Shown here: in pieces, positions 47,624 to 54,759 of the stretch | Position numbering within the stretch: the first letter of the stretch is position 1 | Layout: each line of letters opens with the position of its first letter | NCBI RefSeq assembly: GCF_000718555.1 | Contig: NZ_JOAN01000020.1 | Location: forward strand, 53,515 to 117,514 | Source of the DNA: Micromonospora chokoriensis | GTDB lineage: Bacteria > Actinomycetota > Actinomycetes > Mycobacteriales > Micromonosporaceae | Length of the DNA: 64,000 nt | Direction: 5' to 3' | Position numbers and translations under genes: made by a program | Notes under the pieces: model-generated | Database searches by the model: none | The model's input: the letters and a program-made list of their open reading frames with translations, nothing else | What the model was told of the DNA's origin: nothing

Positions 47624-49108
47624 TCACCCCGGTGGTGTCGTCGGCGCGCGGTGCGACCCGCCCGCTCGGGCGTGCGAGGTGGGCGTGGTCACCGGCACGA
47701 ACGGGAGGTCCTTCTTGTTCTTCGTCCGATCGGGCACCGCCAGGAACGACGCCGCGGTCTCGTTGCGCCGCTTGGCACGGCGCGGTGCGGTCGCCGACGC
47801 CGGGGTGTTGTTCTTCGTCGACCGGCTGTGCCGGGCACCGGCCTTGTGTCGGCCGGGGCCGCTCGTGCCAGCGCGCGCCTCGGCGCCGGCGACGGTCACC
47901 GGGTTGGGGATCAGCGCGGGGCGTGGGCTGGCGGTGCGGCCCGCGCGGCGGTGCCGTGCACGCCCGCTGCCGGTCTTGAACCCGAGGGCGGGACGTTCCA
48001 CCAGGTGCCAGGAGAGGACGGCGCACAGCAGGGCGCCGAGCAGGCTCAGCACGATGTAGCCGGCCATCCCGAACCGGGCGCCGCCGAGCAGGGCGATCAT
48101 CTGCTGCACCGGGAAGCCGTAGATGTAGATGCCGTACGTGTAGTCGTGCCGGCGGCTGATGCCGGACCACCGCTTCGGCAGCGCGACCGCCGCGAACAGC
48201 ACCAGGTAGGCGAACGCCAGCAGGCCGACCGCGAAGAACCCGCCCAGCCACAACGAGCCGACCAGCGTGACGGAGGCCAGCACGGCCAACGTCGAGGTCA
48301 TCGGGATGCGGTGCGCGTACAGGCGTGCGGCGGCACCCAGCAGGAACAGGAAGCCGAGCATCAACGTCCAGTCGGCGGCGAAGGCCCCGATCAGCGGGAA
48401 CGGCCCGATCGCGCCGTGCTGCGGCGGCCGGGAGCTCCAGGTCGGCGCCGTGAAGAAGTCCGCCAGGATCAGCGCGTAACAGACGGCGGTCAGGACGAGC
48501 ACGGCACGTGGGGCCCGGTGCAGCACCGAGGTCACCACGAGGATGCCGACGATGCCGTAGAACGCCAGGTCGTAGCGGAGCGTCCACAGTGATCCGTCGA
48601 ACGCGCTGGGTCCGCCGACGATCTGTCCGTACGGGGTGTCGGCCAGCAGTCCGGAGATGGGGAACTGCTCCATCGAGGCGACGAAGTTCGTGGTGACGTA
48701 GTCGAAGGGGCCCTCGGGGTGTCCCCAGAACCCGTCGAGGTTGCCGTTCTCGTAGAGCGCCGCCAGTGGGGCGAAGACGAACGCGGTGACCAGCAGGCAG
48801 ACCCACAGCCCCGGGAAGACCCGCAGCAGGCGGGCACGGACGTACTGGCGCAGCGTGGAGCGCAGGGCGCTGTCGGTGATGAGGTATCCGGAGATCAGGA
48901 AGAATCCGTACAGGCACATGGTGCCGAGGTCACTCTGCCGGCCGAACGTCGCCGCCCCGATGTTGGCCTCACCGAAGCCCAGCGGCCCGGCGTGCGCGAT
49001 GATCACGCCGCACGCCATCGCCAGGCGAAGCACGCCGAAGGCGTTGTACTGGGCCGAGTATCTGCCCTGCAGAGTCGGGGACCGCTGCCCGTTGAACCAC
49101 GCCTGCAC
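47624..49108 (-). CDS. Membrane acyltransferase (acyltransferase 3/OafA family)
   Basis: A 494-residue protein with about ten helices of the acyltransferase 3 family, which transfer acetyl or other acyl groups onto surface sugars or lipids. Family marks are LRLAMACGVIIAHAGPLGFG, GFFLISGYLIT, RARLLRVFPGLWVC and the last helices near SWHLVERPALGF. The C-terminal 110 residues are basic and disordered. The GTG at 49108 has GAGGAG 7 bases upstream. It sits at the edge of the glycan locus and may O-acylate the surface polysaccharide. Confidence 0.86.
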   Translation of the reverse strand: MQAWFNGQRSPTLQGRYSAQYNAFGVLRLAMACGVIIAHAGPLGFGEANIGAATFGRQSDLGTMCLYGFFLISGYLITDSALRSTLRQYVRARLLRVFPGLWVCLLVTAFVFAPLAALYENGNLDGFWGHPEGPFDYVTTNFVASMEQFPISGLLADTPYGQIVGGPSAFDGSLWTLRYDLAFYGIVGILVVTSVLHRAPRAVLVLTAVCYALILADFFTAPTWSSRPPQHGAIGPFPLIGAFAADWTLMLGFLFLLGAAARLYAHRIPMTSTLAVLASVTLVGSLWLGGFFAVGLLAFAYLVLFAAVALPKRWSGISRRHDYTYGIYIYGFPVQQMIALLGGARFGMAGYIVLSLLGALLCAVLSWHLVERPALGFKTGSGRARHRRAGRTASPRPALIPNPVTVAGAEARAGTSGPGRHKAGARHSRSTKNNTPASATAPRRAKRRNETAASFLAVPDRTKNKKDLPFVPVTTPTSHARAGGSHRAPTTPPG

Positions 49109-49249
49109 CTGACGACTCCTCTGATCACTGACCTGCGTGGACCGACAGATCGCAACGCTGCCGATCGGCACTTCGATGAGCCAAGTATCAGTGGAGAAGG
49201 GGCATTTGTCCGGTTAACTCCATGATTGTCGGGATCGACTGGGCGGGGT

Positions 49250-50413
49250 TCAGGTGGCGGCGGCGACGGGGCGGCGGCGAGGCTGGACCAGCCGACCGGC
49301 CGGTACGTTCAGCAGCTCCGCGATCGCCACCACCGAGCGCTCGCCGGCCCGTCCGTCGCCGAACGGTGAGCCGACCGCACCAGCCCGCCCTGCGGCGAGG
49401 TGACGAAGCCCGGCCGACACGAGCCGTTCGGGATCGGTGCCCACCAACTCGCCGCGGCCCGGTGTCAGGGCCTCCGGACGTTCCGTGGTGTCCCTGGTGA
49501 CCAACAATGGCACCCCCAGGGTGGCGGCCTCCTCCTGGAGCCCGCCCGAGTCGGTGACGACCAGGTCTGCCGCTCGCAGCAGCCCGACCATCTGCGGGTA
49601 GGGCAGCGGTGGGGTGACCCGGGCGTTGGTGATGCCCGCCAGGCCCGTGGTGACCTGCGCGCTGAGCTGCGGATTAGGGTGGGCGACCAGGACGATCTGG
49701 ACGTCCGGGCACTGCCGCGCCAGGCGGCGAAGCCCGTCCACCGTGGCGGCCACACCGTGGCCCCAGTTCTCCCGGCGGTGCACGGTGGCCACCACCAGCT
49801 TGCGGGCCGGGTCGACCCAGGCCGGTGCCTGCGCCGTGCCGCGCTCGACGAGGTCCTGAAGTGCGTCCACGACGGTGTTGCCGGTCACCACGATCGCATC
49901 GGAGCGAATGCCCTCACCGATGAGGTTCGCCCGGGCCGCCGGGGTCGGCGCCAGGTGCAGCGCCGCGATTCGCGCGAGCATCGCCCGGTTGGCCTCCTCT
50001 GGGAACGGCCGGTCCAGGTCGTTGGTCCGCAGCCCGGCCTCCAGGTGTACGACCGGGACGCGCCGCCAGAACGCTGCCGTCCCGCCGGCCAGGGCGGTCG
50101 TGGTGTCCCCTTGCACCACGACCGCCGCTGGACGGTGGCGTGTGAGCAGGTCGTCGATCCCCGTGATCAGGGCCGCCGCCAGCTCGGCGAGCGAGCCGGT
50201 ACGCCGTTGCGGGCGCAGGCTCACCTCCGGGCAGAGGTCGAACGGGGCGAGTGCCTCGGTGACGCGTCCCGGCTGTTGACCGGTATCCGCCACCCGTACC
50301 GTGAACCTCGGATCATCGAGGAGACGGCGGATCAGAGGCGCGGTCTTCACTCCTTCCGGCCTGGTGCCGGCCAGGATCAGGACCTCTCGCGGTGTCGACC
50401 TGCTCGCACACAT
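49250..50413 (-). CDS. wecB: UDP-N-acetylglucosamine 2-epimerase (non-hydrolysing)
   Basis: A 387-residue enzyme that converts UDP-GlcNAc to UDP-ManNAc for cell-surface glycans. The family motifs are visible: GTRPEGVKTAPL, HLEAGLRTNDLDRPFPEEANR, ATVHRRENWG and VVTDSGGLQEEAATLGVPLL. The start is 7 bases from the stop of the anchored secreted protein gene, so it is the last gene of the 53521-49250 operon. The enzyme is cytoplasmic and presumably feeds the glycosyltransferases of the locus. Confidence 0.92.
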   Translation of the reverse strand: MCASRSTPREVLILAGTRPEGVKTAPLIRRLLDDPRFTVRVADTGQQPGRVTEALAPFDLCPEVSLRPQRRTGSLAELAAALITGIDDLLTRHRPAAVVVQGDTTTALAGGTAAFWRRVPVVHLEAGLRTNDLDRPFPEEANRAMLARIAALHLAPTPAARANLIGEGIRSDAIVVTGNTVVDALQDLVERGTAQAPAWVDPARKLVVATVHRRENWGHGVAATVDGLRRLARQCPDVQIVLVAHPNPQLSAQVTTGLAGITNARVTPPLPYPQMVGLLRAADLVVTDSGGLQEEAATLGVPLLVTRDTTERPEALTPGRGELVGTDPERLVSAGLRHLAAGRAGAVGSPFGDGRAGERSVVAIAELLNVPAGRLVQPRRRPVAAAT

Positions 50414-50419
50414 GTCGGG

Positions 50420-51283
50420 TCAGCTCCTGGCGGCCGCGCGGCGACGCCGGTAGAGCGAGAACCCGCCGGTGGTGCCGGCCACGAGCGCGCCGATACCGAG
50501 CGCGAGCGGTGCCCCGGCGAGCGGGATCACCGGAATGGGCGGGGCGATGGCGTTGGCGCCGCAGCTGGACGTGCCGATGGTGACTCCCGCCAGCGCTCCA
50601 CCGAGCGCCGTCAGGTTCAGCGCCGTGACGGTGAGCTGACCGACGCCCGAGCTGGTCTGGCCGTTGAGGGTCAGGTCGATCAGCCCCGGGATGCTCAGGC
50701 CGGTGTTCGGCGCCGGGTTGAGCGGCAGGCTGAGCAGGGTCGTCTCGATGCCCAGGAGCGTCGAGACGATCCGGGCGTTGACCAGGCTCGCGGTGCCCGT
50801 CGCCGACGGGCTGCTGGTGGCGGTGCATGAGGAGTAGATGGCGTCGGCGACGAGTGAGATCGTGGCGAGGCCGCTGGTCCCGAGGGTCAGCGTCACCCCG
50901 GCGCCCGGCGTGACGAGGCAGGACCCACCGGGACCGATGGTGATCGTGCCGCCCGTGCCGAGCACACCGGCGCAGGCCGCCGAAGTGCCGTCGTTGAACG
51001 CCCGGACGTTCTGGCCCAGCACACCCGCGGTGATCACGGTCTGCGCGCCGAGCACGGCCAGTGGGGGATTCTGGTTACCGGAGATCGACTCGGTGGTGCC
51101 GTCGTTGGTGGCCGACGCGGTGCCGGAGCTGGCGAGGCCGCCACCGAGCAGGCTGATCTGTAGCGCCGAGGCGGAGGACTGGGAGGTGTCGGCCATCGCC
51201 GGAGAGGCTGCCAGGACGACCATGGCGAGGCCACCGGCCAGCACCGCGGCGGTGCGGGCGAGACCGGATCTAACTCGTGGCAT
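50420..51283 (-). CDS. Secreted protein with C-terminal membrane anchor (choice-of-anchor type)
   Basis: A 287-residue exported protein. A signal peptide (about 1-31, ending PAMA) is followed by a S/T/G-rich extracellular region with several cysteines (SAACAGVLG, GGSCLVTPG, YSSCTATSS, GTSSCGANA). The end is tripartite: a proline-rich linker (PPIPVIPLAG), a 20-residue helix (LALGIGALVAGTTGGF) and a basic tail (YRRRRAAARS). This resembles sorting signals. It lies 6 bases from the membrane glycosyltransferase gene and 7 from the epimerase gene. It is a candidate substrate of the nearby exosortase-like protein; sortase-independent anchoring is the alternative. Confidence 0.78.
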   Translation of the reverse strand: MPRVRSGLARTAAVLAGGLAMVVLAASPAMADTSQSSASALQISLLGGGLASSGTASATNDGTTESISGNQNPPLAVLGAQTVITAGVLGQNVRAFNDGTSAACAGVLGTGGTITIGPGGSCLVTPGAGVTLTLGTSGLATISLVADAIYSSCTATSSPSATGTASLVNARIVSTLLGIETTLLSLPLNPAPNTGLSIPGLIDLTLNGQTSSGVGQLTVTALNLTALGGALAGVTIGTSSCGANAIAPPIPVIPLAGAPLALGIGALVAGTTGGFSLYRRRRAAARS

Positions 51284-51289
51284 AGATGT

Positions 51290-52843
51290 CTACTTTCTGA
51301 TGTGGGCGATAGCGGGGCGGTCTGTGGTGGGGGTGGTCAGGTGGGCGAGGTGGCTGAGGTGCCGGGGCGGTCTGATCGACCGTGGTCCGTCGTTGCGGCC
51401 CGACCGGCGTGCGGGCTGCGCCCGACGCGGCTGGGCTGGGACTGCCGCTCGACCCACGGCCGGCGAACCGACTGTCACTCGACCCACGGCCCGCGGGGTC
51501 GGTTGTGGCTGCGGATCGGCGGCACGGGCGGTCTTCTGCCAGTCGGTGCGGGCGGTCACCATCCGGCCGAAGGCCAGCCAGACCGCCAGTGACTGGGCGT
51601 AGCTGTAGAGCCAGTGGCAGACGCCGAGCAGCAGCGCCTTGGGCACCGACAGGTGCGGCTCACAACGGATCCGGTAGACGATGCCCCAGAGGGCGAACGG
51701 TCCGATGCCGAAGAAGAGCACCAGCGGGGGTACGCCCCAGCCGCCGCTGCTCCACCAGCCGCGCAGTCCGCCGGCGGTGTTGTCGATGTAGTAGGACATC
51801 ACCACCAGGCAGGCGACATAGATCGGCGTGCCGAGCAGTTGGGCCCACGGCGCGGACAGGAAGTGGGCGATCTCCAGGGTGGCCGAGTTGCGGATTCGCG
51901 GCGAGCGCAGCACCTTGCCGAGGTAGCGGCCACACTGCATCGACCCCTGGGCCCACCGGGTGCGCTGGCGCACCAGCGGGCGGATCCGGGTCAACGCCTC
52001 CTGGGCCACCCAGCTCTCCGGGCAGTACTCGGTGCGTCCACCGGCCAGCAGGATGTGCAGGCCCAGCTCGAAGTCCTCCAGCAGGGCGCCGTGCCACGGT
52101 GTGCCGTGCTGGTCGGCGATCTCGTTGAGCAGGGACAGCCGGGTGAACTGCCCGTTGCCGCCCATCGCGACGCTGCCGGTGCGCCGCCGCAGCGACTGCA
52201 TGGCGGCGATCGGCGCGCGGAACTCCATGTCCTGTAGCCGGATCAGCAGCCGTCCCCAGCGGCTGACCTGGGTCTTCGGGGCGTACCGGCGCGGCGCGCA
52301 CTGGAGCATCCGCACCTCCACCTGCACGGCCCCGACCTCGGCCGCGCCGAAGTACTGACGGCCGGAGAGGGCGACCGGACCCTGCGGGTCGAGTCGGCTG
52401 TCCGCGTCCAACACGCCGACGATCACCCGCGTCCGGTCGGCGTTGGCGGGCAGCGACTGCTCGATGCCTCGCCAGGCGGCGTTGAGCGCGGCGCCCTTGC
52501 CCTGCCGCGCGTCCGGCAGTTGACGCTGGACCACGTGTACCCGAGGCTGGTCGGCGAAGGCCGCCAGCTCAGCGAGGGTGCCGTCGTCGGACGCGTCGTC
52601 GACGCACCAGACGGTCGCCTGGGGGAAGTCGCACAGCAGTCGTCGCACGGTGTCGCCGATGACCGACGCCTCGTTGCGGCACGGCACGATGATGTGCCAG
52701 TCGAAGCCGTCCGGACTACCGCCCCGGCTGCGCCCGCTCTTCAGGTGGAAGACCAGGATGCTCAGCACGTACGCGCAGAAGCTGACGCAGAGCAGGAAAG
52801 CCGCCGTGTTGAGCAGGGCGAGAGACTGGGTCTCAGTGGACAC
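51290..52843 (-). CDS. Membrane-bound family 2 glycosyltransferase
   Basis: A 517-residue processive-type GT2 enzyme. One helix (about 10-35) precedes the catalytic domain: HIIVPCRNEAS, VDDASDDGT, the DxD in GVLDADS, EDFELG and the RQRTRW motif of the (Q/R)xxRW type. Three or four C-terminal helices follow (about 320-420), then a disordered P/R-rich tail of about 90 residues. This layout is that of cellulose/hyaluronan-synthase-like polymerases that extrude the chain. Its start overlaps the exosortase-like gene by 11 bases. The sugar used is unknown; UDP-ManNAc or UDP-GlcNAc is plausible given the epimerase downstream. Confidence 0.88.
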   Translation of the reverse strand: MSTETQSLALLNTAAFLLCVSFCAYVLSILVFHLKSGRSRGGSPDGFDWHIIVPCRNEASVIGDTVRRLLCDFPQATVWCVDDASDDGTLAELAAFADQPRVHVVQRQLPDARQGKGAALNAAWRGIEQSLPANADRTRVIVGVLDADSRLDPQGPVALSGRQYFGAAEVGAVQVEVRMLQCAPRRYAPKTQVSRWGRLLIRLQDMEFRAPIAAMQSLRRRTGSVAMGGNGQFTRLSLLNEIADQHGTPWHGALLEDFELGLHILLAGGRTEYCPESWVAQEALTRIRPLVRQRTRWAQGSMQCGRYLGKVLRSPRIRNSATLEIAHFLSAPWAQLLGTPIYVACLVVMSYYIDNTAGGLRGWWSSGGWGVPPLVLFFGIGPFALWGIVYRIRCEPHLSVPKALLLGVCHWLYSYAQSLAVWLAFGRMVTARTDWQKTARAADPQPQPTPRAVGRVTVGSPAVGRAAVPAQPRRAQPARRSGRNDGPRSIRPPRHLSHLAHLTTPTTDRPAIAHIRK

Positions 52844-53375
52844 CGGCCACCGCCTGAGGGGCCCGCTTGGTCCGGCTGACCAAGACCACGAACAGGATCG
52901 TGACGGCGATCAGACCAGCGGTGGTGATCACCGAGCCGATCAGCACGTGGCTGCGTTCGTAGCCGAGCCGGAAGCCCCAGGTCTGCATCGAGACCACCAC
53001 GGCCCCGAGCCTGATCTGGTTCACCGTGACCAGTAGTACGACGGCCATCGCCAGCGCGTTCAGACCACGCGTCAACGAGATGCGCCGGAACCCGATAAGC
53101 GTCGAGGCCAGCACGATCGGCGGGATCAGCAGCATGGCGACCGAGCAGCCGCTGGACACCATGAAGCCGACCCAGCGCTCATCGAGCGGGAAGATCACGG
53201 CCGCGCCGATGGACTTGGTGTCGGCCAACCCGACCGCGTTGACCAGCTGAGCGTTCAGCCACGCCTCGCCGCTGGCGATGTCGTGCCAGCGCCAGAGCGT
53301 GGCGGCGGCGATGACGACACCGACCAGGCCGCCTGCGCAGGCGCGCAACCACGACCCCCGTCGGGAAACTGTCAT
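52833..53375 (-). CDS. Small exosortase/archaeosortase-like transpeptidase
   Basis: A 180-residue membrane protein with about five helices. It carries the three residues that define the exosortase/archaeosortase family in the right order and setting: C77 in VSSGCSVAML, R122 in VNQIRLGAVV and H143 in ERSHVLIGSV. The family cleaves C-terminal tripartite sorting signals and anchors the protein to a lipid or glycan. It is shorter than most exosortases, lacking extra N-terminal helices. The ATG overlaps the miniprotein stop (ATGA), and the glycosyltransferase gene overlaps its end. The partner substrate is likely the miniprotein or the anchored secreted protein. Confidence 0.8.
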   Translation of the reverse strand: MTVSRRGSWLRACAGGLVGVVIAAATLWRWHDIASGEAWLNAQLVNAVGLADTKSIGAAVIFPLDERWVGFMVSSGCSVAMLLIPPIVLASTLIGFRRISLTRGLNALAMAVVLLVTVNQIRLGAVVVSMQTWGFRLGYERSHVLIGSVITTAGLIAVTILFVVLVSRTKRAPQAVAGVH

Positions 53376-53521
53376 CGTTCGCGGCCCAACATGGCGACGA
53401 GCCACAGCGCCACGCCCAGCACGACCAGACCGACGCCGACCAGCAACCAAGACTGGATGGCAACCCCCGTGGCGGCCAGGCCACCACCGATGTGCGGTCC
53501 CTTGGTGGGTACTCCGTACAT
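53372..53521 (-). CDS. 49-residue miniprotein with LAATG motif and one membrane helix
   Basis: A short protein: about 14 polar residues, then LAATG (15-19), a helix (about 24-45, WLLVGVGLVVLGVALWLVAM) and the basic tail GRER. This is the make-up of a sortase-type sorting signal with almost nothing in front of it, and no signal peptide. The ATG at 53521 has GGGAG 5-6 bases upstream and is preferred to a TTG at 53575 without such a site. It overlaps the exosortase-like gene by 4 bases. It could be a substrate, a pilus-like subunit or an accessory subunit of the enzyme. Confidence 0.7.
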   Translation of the reverse strand: MYGVPTKGPHIGGGLAATGVAIQSWLLVGVGLVVLGVALWLVAMLGRER

Positions 53522-53700
53522 GCCAACTCCCTCGCTAAACCCGAAGGCCAGAATGGCATTGGGCAATTCGGGCAAAGAGGATAAAGCGGCATAGAAACCC
53601 TAAAGAGTGATTAAATGCTTCACGGGTGGGTGTTGTCAGCTGCATCCCTTGCCCCGCAACGGGTTCAGGCGTCCAGACGGTTCGTTCAGAGGTGGTCAAG

Positions 53701-54759
53701 ATGGTGACCGGTATCCCCAGCCGCGCGGTCCCGCCGGCGACGTCGACGTCGAGGTGGCGGGCGATGGCGGGGTGGAAGAAGGCGGCCATCAGCCTGCTCC
53801 TGCTGCTCGCCGTGCTCTGCGCGGGCCTGGTCGCCGTCGGCTTCGGCCTCAAGCACCGGTACGAGGGCCGCGTGCAGCGCGAGGACATCCTGGGTCAGGG
53901 CACCGGCGCCCACGACGACCGGCGGTGGGAGTCGGGACCGCTCAACCTCCTGCTGCTCGGGTCGGACTCCCGCGACGGCGAGCCGGACCAGGGCCTCTAC
54001 CCGGGGCAGCGGTCGGACACCATCATGCTGGTGCACGTCAACGCCGCGCGGGACGGAGCCACAGTCGTCTCCATCCCCCGTGACAGCTACGTCGAGGTGC
54101 CCGCGGCGGGGCAGACCTGGGCCGGCGGCCTCAACAAGATCAATGCCGCGTTCGCGTTCGGCGGGGCCGCGCTGGCCGCCGAGACGGTCGCCAAGCTCAC
54201 CGGCCTGCCACTCGACGGCGTGCTGGTGGCCAACTTCGCCGCCGTCCGCAAGCTCGTGGACGCGGTGGAGGGGATCAACGTCTGCCTGCCGTACACCGTG
54301 AAGTCCTCGGACACCGGCGTCACCTGGCCCACCGGCTGCCACGACCTGGACGGTAAGGCGGCCGACGACCTGATGCGGCAGCGGCACGGCGTGCCCGGCG
54401 GCGACTTCGGCCGCATCTACGACCAGCAGCTGGTGGTCCGTGCCCTGGCCGAGCGGGTCACCGCGACGAGTCTGCTCACCAGCCCGACTCGACTCGACCG
54501 GGTGCTTACCACGGCGGCCGAATCGTTGGTCGTCGACCGTGACCTGAACCTGGCCGACCTCGCCCTCGTGCTGCGCAAGGTGAAGCCGGAGACGGTCCAG
54601 TTCGTCACCGTCCCGTTCAGTGACGCCAATCTGCAGACCCCGGCCGGGTCCGCGGTGCGGCTGGACGAGGCCCGGGCCCCGGCGCTCTTCGCCGCACTGC
54701 GCGAGGACCGGGTGGCGCAGTGGCTCACGGCCAACCCGCAGACACCGCCGGCCAACTGA
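53701..54759 (+). CDS. LytR-CpsA-Psr (LCP) family glycan ligase
   Basis: A 352-residue membrane protein. One helix near residues 25-48 anchors an extracellular LCP domain with LLLLGSDSRDG, RSDTIMLVHVNA, SIPRDSYVEVP, and KINAAFAFGG. LCP enzymes transfer undecaprenyl-linked glycans to peptidoglycan. The ATG at 53701 follows GAGG by 8 bases; a longer frame start at 53626 is less likely because it lies in the divergent promoter. It is divergent from the exosortase operon (179-base gap) and fits the attachment step of the glycan locus. Confidence 0.9.
   Translation: MVTGIPSRAVPPATSTSRWRAMAGWKKAAISLLLLLAVLCAGLVAVGFGLKHRYEGRVQREDILGQGTGAHDDRRWESGPLNLLLLGSDSRDGEPDQGLYPGQRSDTIMLVHVNAARDGATVVSIPRDSYVEVPAAGQTWAGGLNKINAAFAFGGAALAAETVAKLTGLPLDGVLVANFAAVRKLVDAVEGINVCLPYTVKSSDTGVTWPTGCHDLDGKAADDLMRQRHGVPGGDFGRIYDQQLVVRALAERVTATSLLTSPTRLDRVLTTAAESLVVDRDLNLADLALVLRKVKPETVQFVTVPFSDANLQTPAGSAVRLDEARAPALFAALREDRVAQWLTANPQTPPAN

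What the first reader, a model, noticed from the sequence alone, without database searches (positions are those of the whole stretch)
49250..53521. Compact exosortase-like operon with its own putative substrates and a glycan synthase
Five minus-strand genes overlap or are 6-11 bases apart: a 49-residue LAATG/helix/basic-tail protein, a 180-residue protein with the Cys77-Arg122-His143 triad of exosortases, a processive membrane GT2, a secreted protein with a tripartite C-terminal anchor, and UDP-GlcNAc 2-epimerase. Exosortases are mostly described in Gram-negative bacteria and archaea with PEP-CTERM-type substrates and EPS genes; here the whole set is in an actinobacterium with a very small substrate. 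The inference is a dedicated system that attaches one or two surface proteins to a co-made polymer or lipid.
Basis: partly seen in the sequence, partly recalled or inferred. Interest (0 to 1): 0.75.

Follow-up and report, generated by a model that had tools for sequence, protein, structure and literature searches.

The report
Exosortase operon plus sugar-polymer sorting-signal miniprotein
A soil actinobacterium carries a five-gene surface-assembly operon that joins an exosortase and its one likely anchored protein to a sugar-polymer enzyme, and the tiny sorting-signal protein in it turns out to travel with sugar-polymer enzymes even where no exosortase is found.

Summary
In detail: five tightly packed minus-strand genes encode a 49-residue LAATG miniprotein, a 180-residue exosortase-like protein with Cys77/Arg122/His143, a membrane GT2, a C-anchored secreted protein and a WecB-type epimerase, in a Micromonospora. 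The kind is known: NCBIfam has exosortases P/R/S, an 'XrtP-associated glycosyltransferase' and 'choice-of-anchor P' proteins, and an exosortase-G-plus-glycosyltransferases set in lactobacilli is in print. This exosortase scores below each P/R/S cut-off.

Comparing 85 loci splits the operon into two modules. Exosortase and secreted protein go together (substrate in 22 of 24 exosortase loci, 0 of 61 others). The miniprotein is commoner with the exosortase (19 of 24 against 16 of 61) but does not need it. In glycosyltransferase-blind searches all 19 miniprotein hits examined outside exosortase loci lay beside a GT2 gene, 11 of these outside the operon's GT family. In one clade it is fused to the exosortase N-terminus (29 of 34 proteins).

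So 'very small exosortase substrate' is not the best reading. More likely the miniprotein is a dedicated GT2 partner with a transpeptidase-type signal, and the secreted protein is the exosortase substrate. Biochemistry is inferred. Most novel reading: the miniprotein is a peptide tether for a GT2-made glycan.

The parts
53372..53521 (-). 49-aa miniprotein: short N-terminal segment (MYGVPTKGPHIGGG), LAATG, one helix, basic tail
   Evidence: NCBIfam NF058583 'LAXTG motif-containing small protein' 28.6 bits, cut-off 65
53465..53479 (-). LAATG codons of the miniprotein (residues 15-19)
   Evidence: sequence; an L[PA]xTG motif is found in each of 23 diverse miniproteins (A7)
52833..53375 (-). exosortase-family protein (180 aa), Cys77 at 53145-53147, Arg122 at 53010-53012, His143 at 52947-52949
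   Evidence: AF2 model mean pLDDT 88.3
51290..52843 (-). membrane GT2, NF053846 'XrtP-associated glycosyltransferase' 506 bits against cut-off 520
50420..51283 (-). secreted 'choice-of-anchor P' protein, likely exosortase substrate
   Evidence: NF040603 33 bits over cut-off 27; one match in the genome
50420..50542 (-). C-terminal anchor PPIPVIPLAG-helix-RRRR of the secreted protein; no L[PA]xTG
   Evidence: sequence; compared
49250..50413 (-). non-hydrolysing UDP-GlcNAc 2-epimerase (WecB type)
   Evidence: TIGR00236 323 bits over cut-off 210

Best explanation
This is an exosortase-polysaccharide locus of the XrtP/XrtG kind, built from two separable modules. Module 1 (GT2, WecB-type epimerase, LxxTG miniprotein) makes an N-acetylhexosamine-containing polymer at the membrane; the epimerase supplies UDP-ManNAc, and the miniprotein is the GT2's dedicated small membrane partner, displayed N-out, whose LAATG signal can be cut by a transpeptidase. 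Module 2 (exosortase, choice-of-anchor P protein) cuts the P-x-x-P-type C-terminal anchor of the one secreted protein and moves it to a surface acceptor, lipid or polymer. Shown by computation: gene content, conserved triad, co-occurrence, the miniprotein's occurrence without the exosortase and its recurrent place beside GT2 genes. Inferred: sugar identity, processivity, topology, cleavage, acceptor.
For: Exosortase only in GT-bearing genomes in 250 Micromonosporaceae: 14 of 75 against 0 of 175. Substrate in 22 of 24 exosortase loci and 0 of 61 others (5 of the 22 assigned by eye). Epimerase in 77 of 85 loci. Short L[PA]xTG miniprotein upstream of the GT in 16 of 40 fetched exosortase-less Micromonosporaceae loci. 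GT-blind miniprotein profile: 17 of 17 examined Micromonosporaceae hits outside exosortase loci (13 with open frame under 120 aa, 4 more matching from profile position 1 in longer frames) and 2 of 2 new class-level small-frame hits lie beside a GT2. Exosortase loci without a miniprotein keep the substrate (5 of 5). A homologue that has lost Cys and His (P0022) comes from a contig of the same length, and the same strain, as a kept miniprotein (P0036).
Against: The miniprotein is enriched at exosortase loci (19 of 24 against 16 of 61, p 1.5e-5), is fused to the exosortase in one clade (29 of 34 proteins), and overlaps it by 4 bases in the window, so a direct exosortase link exists. The 20 fetched GT loci of genus code g29 have no miniprotein at that GT, so it is not obligatory for the GT. 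Associations are clade-structured: 2 independent pairs on starred branches, so no kinship-corrected test can reach significance. Whether the GT is processive and what it makes is not shown.
Confidence: 0.6

Rival explanations
1. One reading: the miniprotein is itself a substrate of the exosortase, so one dedicated enzyme anchors two proteins to a co-made polymer or lipid.
For: In the same locus as, or fused to, 19 of 24 exosortases, against 16 of 61 exosortase-less loci; LxxTG-helix-basic has the tripartite layout of a sorting signal.
Against: Present beside GT2 genes where no exosortase was detected; not found in 5 exosortase loci; its motif (LxxTG) differs from the substrate's anchor (P-x-x-P type); a substrate fused one-to-one to its enzyme would be a poor turnover substrate (inference).
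Confidence: 0.15
2. The miniprotein is an ordinary substrate of a housekeeping (class E) sortase and its place in the operon is incidental to the GT and the exosortase.
For: The genome has 7 sortase-domain matches. Class E sortases take LAXTG (PMC5148588, passages) and the Actinoplanes SrtE seems to take LPVTG (PMC13251363, passages); the miniprotein has LPVTG in 12 of the 16 exosortase-less GT loci.
Against: Its place beside GT2 genes is unlikely to be incidental (19 of 19 examined in GT-blind searches). In the window genome the two classical substrates examined end LPVTG and LPLTG, the miniprotein LAATG; but this does not discriminate, since miniproteins in a genome without a detected exosortase (L212) and at an exosortase-less locus (L149) also have LAATG.
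Confidence: 0.12
3. The miniprotein is a pure structural subunit of the GT2 or the exosortase (as the small partner of poly-GlcNAc synthases is; recalled), never cleaved.
For: Positional coupling with GT2; fusion to the exosortase; longer single-helix proteins (66-123 aa, 10 of 14 starting Met-Tyr) upstream of the GT in 14 exosortase-less class-level loci, where the LxxTG-like motif, if any, is far from the helix.
Against: The LxxTG motif kept just before the helix in the short forms is unexplained by a purely structural role.
Confidence: 0.13

Closest known systems
XrtP / CoaP system (NCBIfam NF012139, NF053845, NF053846, NF040603)
   Same: exosortase, choice-of-anchor P protein and the same GT2 family in one locus
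   Different: window exosortase 53 bits against a cut-off of 200, GT 506 against 520, no CoaP_CTERM match at E<=1; the closest of the three exosortase models is XrtR (73 of 150)
Exosortase G (XrtG) system of Lactiplantibacillus plantarum (PMC12854382, one passage read)
   Same: Gram-positive exosortase next to a C-terminal-anchor protein and glycosyltransferases
   Different: two GTs, Firmicu-CTERM protein; no LxxTG miniprotein or epimerase named in that passage. Lactococcus lactis was the one control genome of 14 hit by NF053846 at E<=1e-40
PEP-CTERM/EpsH exosortases (PMC1569441, search listing only; PMC12188702, passages)
   Same: exosortase tied to exopolysaccharide genes and tripartite C-terminal signals
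   Different: described there for Gram-negative bacteria with a PEP signal; here a PVIPLAG-type anchor in a Gram-positive
LAXTG motif-containing small protein NF058583
   Same: near full-length alignment of the miniprotein (1-48 of 49 to 1-50 of 54)
   Different: 28.6 bits against cut-off 65; the model's description gives no function or context
Class E sortase substrates (PMC5148588, PMC13251363, passages)
   Same: LAXTG/LPVTG, helix, basic tail
   Different: no signal peptide seen and only 14 residues before the motif; the classical-looking proteins examined have open frames of 163-609 aa

Membership tests
exosortase/archaeosortase superfamily | Cys/Arg/His triad | tested here: met
   29 of 30 close sequences (P0022 lacks Cys and His); invariant in 37 diverse ones, P0022 not included
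exosortase/archaeosortase superfamily | over the TIGR04178 signature cut-off | tested here: not met
   22.4 against 23 for the window protein; 9 of 10 tested relatives pass with 28.5-39.5, L056 does not (20.4)
exosortase/archaeosortase superfamily | fold match to a solved member | tested here: inconclusive
   good AF2 model but no significant PDB match (best E 0.17; fusion 0.052); no solved sequence matched better than E 0.11
XrtP, XrtR or XrtS | curated score cut-off of each family | tested here: not met
   53 of 200, 73 of 150, 63 of 145 bits
XrtP-associated glycosyltransferase NF053846 | cut-off 520 bits | tested here: not met
   506 bits; same-family relative G120 531
choice-of-anchor P NF040603 | cut-off 27 bits | tested here: met
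   33 bits
CoaP C-terminal domain NF053845 | match to the CoaP sorting domain | tested here: not met
   no hit at E<=1; L064's protein passes with 41.7 against 35
sortase-type sorting signal | pentapeptide, helix, basic tail | tested here: met
   but the TIGR01167 domain model is not passed (12.4 against 15.9)
sortase-type sorting signal | cleavage between T and G | not testable with these tools
   needs protein chemistry
LAXTG small protein NF058583 | cut-off 65 bits | tested here: not met
   28.6 bits
WecB epimerase TIGR00236 | cut-off 210 bits | tested here: met
   323 bits
XrtG system | match to XrtG and its GT models | not tested
   no XrtG model appeared among the hits; no separate test was run

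The most novel reading that the evidence does not exclude
Actinobacterial LxxTG miniproteins are genetically encoded peptide tethers: a membrane GT2 builds or loads its glycan on the short exposed N-terminal segment (position 2 is Tyr or Ser in all 23 of A7, and Tyr in all 11 beside GT2s outside the operon's GT family), and a sortase or exosortase then cuts the LxxTG and staples the glycopeptide to the envelope. The exosortase fusions would be the same device in one chain.
Probability: 0.2. Interest if true: 0.88.

Novelty: new variant of a known kind. Interest (0 to 1): 0.58.

Why it matters
It gives a compact Gram-positive exosortase system with a single likely substrate, which would make the open question of what exosortases attach their proteins to directly testable. 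It also points to a rule I did not find described: tiny proteins consisting of almost nothing but a sorting signal sit beside membrane GT2 genes, with or without an exosortase. If they are tethers, that would be a protein-based way of fixing polysaccharides to a wall.

Tried and rejected
Fold search: two AF2 models (window exosortase pLDDT 88.3; fusion P0039 pLDDT 78.2) gave no significant PDB match. In the fusion model residues 1-25, which hold LPYTG, are below 50, so the model says nothing on docking of the motif at the active site.

Idea that the A or P of LxxTG tells exosortase from sortase use: rejected. L212, in a genome without a detected exosortase, and exosortase-less locus L149 have LAATG; exosortase-bearing L061 has LPVTG.

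Idea that Tyr2 is a strict glycosylation site: weak. Ser occurs in one clade, Leu and Ser once each in the 29 fusions, His or Phe in some long forms.

Genome-contig scan with the exosortase gave 4 loci. Paper searches: exosortase with XrtP found 0 papers; in the capped lists no title or printed start of an abstract described this actinobacterial set or GT2-linked LPXTG miniproteins. Four papers were looked into by passages only; the rest were not opened, so absence from print is not shown.

Corrections: miniprotein wrong frame (protein 1); L061 wrong frame in A3, put right in A6; script failed and was rerun. In A7 the L080 motif is misaligned (LPQTG lies upstream). The DUF2334 count uses a short protein motif as proxy, checked by Pfam in 4 proteins. 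Five substrate assignments (L061, L070, L080, L084, L087) were made by eye from C-terminal anchors. In one search's automatic list, hits in 8 of the 61 exosortase-less loci looked like other proteins and were not counted as substrates. The under-120-aa rule for GT-blind hits was set after seeing the list and uses stop-to-stop frames; on re-checking I added the 4 printed matches outside exosortase loci that start at profile position 1 in longer frames, and they agreed. Printed matches starting at later profile positions in long frames were mostly left alone; 15 of the 20 stretches read hold such proteins and these look like classical long LPxTG proteins.
Full report
What is there. The five genes are real and packed as described. 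NCBIfam names two outright: WecB-type UDP-GlcNAc 2-epimerase (323 bits over 210) and choice-of-anchor P family protein (33 over 27). It nearly names the GT ('XrtP-associated glycosyltransferase', 506 against 520) and places the 180-residue protein among exosortases R, S and P without reaching a cut-off (73 of 150, 63 of 145, 53 of 200). The nearest named homologues are from Micromonospora and Plantactinospora. In the window genome the searches found one exosortase match, one choice-of-anchor P match and 7 sortase-domain matches.

The exosortase. In the 30 close sequences (window included) only P0022 departs from the triad: Cys to Tyr, His to Leu, Arg kept. Its contig length and strain equal those of miniprotein P0036, so the same contig probably keeps the miniprotein. 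In 37 diverse sequences without P0022, E37, C77, N119, R122, G134, H143 and G147 are invariant. AlphaFold2 gives four long helices (5-28, 30-48, 101-133, 135-167), two short ones and three strands (54-72) just before Cys77 (pLDDT 88.3). Nothing solved resembles it significantly.

Distribution. In 250 Micromonosporaceae genomes the exosortase profile matches 14 and the GT family at E<=1e-40 matches 75; all 14 lie within the 75 (Fisher p 2e-8, not corrected for kinship). In 394 class genomes XrtS matches 11, none over its cut-off. Nine of these, the window included, are at NF053846-type GT loci that I fetched; the two others (G282, G289; L222, L221) lie near an epimerase-like and a GT2-like gene judged by eye.

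Two modules. I compared 85 loci: the window, 4 named loci, 40 of the first fetches and 40 exosortase-less Micromonosporaceae GT loci. The last 40 are 40 of the 64 exosortase-less GT matches listed; the 24 left out all belong to genus code g29. The class-level part covers 30 of the 37 GT matches of 176 bits or more listed, window included. The exosortase is in 24 of 85. A substrate-type secreted protein is in 22 of the 24 and in 0 of the 61 others; L067 and L088 lack one. A short L[PA]xTG miniprotein is in the same locus in 18 of the 24 and fused in one more (L070). It is usually next to the exosortase, but in L064 it lies on the other strand beyond the GT. In L056-L060 none was found. It also stands directly upstream of the GT in 16 of the 40 exosortase-less Micromonosporaceae loci. 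All 20 fetched g29 loci lack it there, so 16 of 64 is the fairer fraction if the rest of g29 is alike. A longer single-helix protein (66-123 aa, 10 of 14 starting Met-Tyr) lies upstream of the GT in 14 exosortase-less class-level loci. On the GT tree the exosortase needs 4 changes and the miniprotein (long forms included) 7. DUF2334-type proteins, detected by a motif proxy, are in 39 of 61 exosortase-less loci and 0 of 24 exosortase loci (p 1e-8), as if one replaces the other. With kinship taken into account these associations cannot be tested: 2 independent pairs.

The miniprotein follows GT2. A profile of 14 miniproteins from exosortase loci, blind to the GT, was run over the 250 genomes. 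It matches classical long LPxTG proteins in nearly every genome (247 of 250 at E<=1e-3). Among the printed matches (the list is cut), 23 have an open frame under 120 aa: 10 at exosortase loci and 13 elsewhere. All 13 lie beside a GT2 gene: 8 beside the NF053846-type GT and 5 beside a GT2 outside that match set (L209-L213; Pfam). Four more printed matches begin at profile position 1 in longer stop-to-stop frames; each is a Met-Tyr miniprotein 2-26 bases after a Pfam-confirmed GT2 (L223-L226). Two of these four are g29 genomes, whose fetched NF053846-type GT loci have no miniprotein. A profile from 23 miniproteins over 394 class genomes gave 12 matches in 12 genomes at E<=1e-8. Nine are small frames, 7 of them at known exosortase loci and 2 new (G350, G312); both new ones lie beside a Pfam-confirmed GT2. 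The three others are long frames. In sum 19 of 19 examined; all 11 beside GT2s outside the NF053846 set start Met-Tyr.

Fusion. A search with the L070 protein gave 34 proteins, its own record P0039 included; 29 begin with M-(27 with Y)...L[PA]xTG-helix fused to the exosortase, 22 of them LPFTG or LPYTG. In the alignment all 34 keep C, N, R and H. So the miniprotein can work in cis with an exosortase, yet each also occurs without the other.

Reading. The secreted protein, with its PVIPLAG-helix-RRRR end, is the likely exosortase substrate. The miniprotein is better seen as a partner of the membrane GT2 that carries a transpeptidase-type signal. LAXTG and LPXTG peptides are both cleaved by SrtE1 of Streptomyces (PMC5148588, passages), and the Actinoplanes SrtE seems to use LPVTG (PMC13251363, passages), so a sortase could serve where no exosortase exists. 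I do not show that any cleavage occurs. The polymer's sugar is inferred from the epimerase (77 of 85 loci).

Known or new. Exosortase, anchor protein and GTs in a Gram-positive is reported for XrtG in Lactiplantibacillus plantarum (PMC12854382, one passage) and modelled for XrtP in NCBIfam. Exosortase tied to exopolysaccharide is old (PMC1569441, listing only; PMC12188702, passages). Not met in the listings: the below-cut-off exosortase clade, the module split, the miniprotein-exosortase fusions and the miniprotein-GT2 pairing. NCBIfam NF058583 shows that small LAXTG proteins as such have been noticed.

Noticed in passing
L209 6232-7602, L210 4392-5786, L211 6523-8112, L212 297-1715, L213 6373-7627, L218 5931-7169, L219 4571-5824, L223 1752-3508, L224 1848-3307, L225 2360-3597, L226 1871-3351: LxxTG miniproteins, each starting Met-Tyr, paired with GT2 genes outside the NF053846 match set.
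   Followed up: partly
85 GT loci: DUF2334-type proteins (motif proxy) and the exosortase never share a locus (0 of 24 against 39 of 61).
   Followed up: partly
P0022 and P0036 (Micromonospora sp. DT233): Exosortase homologue with Cys to Tyr and His to Leu, miniprotein kept on a contig of the same length.
   Followed up: no
window 53626-54759 +: Divergent LytR-CpsA-Psr gene next to the operon; among the 45 loci searched only L002, L003 and L051 also have it. Such enzymes attach polymers to the wall (recalled).
   Followed up: no
window 47624-49171 -: Acyltransferase-3 membrane protein just downstream; homologues near L002, L003, L005, L051, L054 and L055.
   Followed up: no
L080 8702-11098: Three similar C-anchored proteins in tandem beside the exosortase.
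   Followed up: no
L213 2272-3631: A second GT2-miniprotein pair (MSANQELPLTG...) in the same locus; GT2 confirmed by Pfam.
   Followed up: partly
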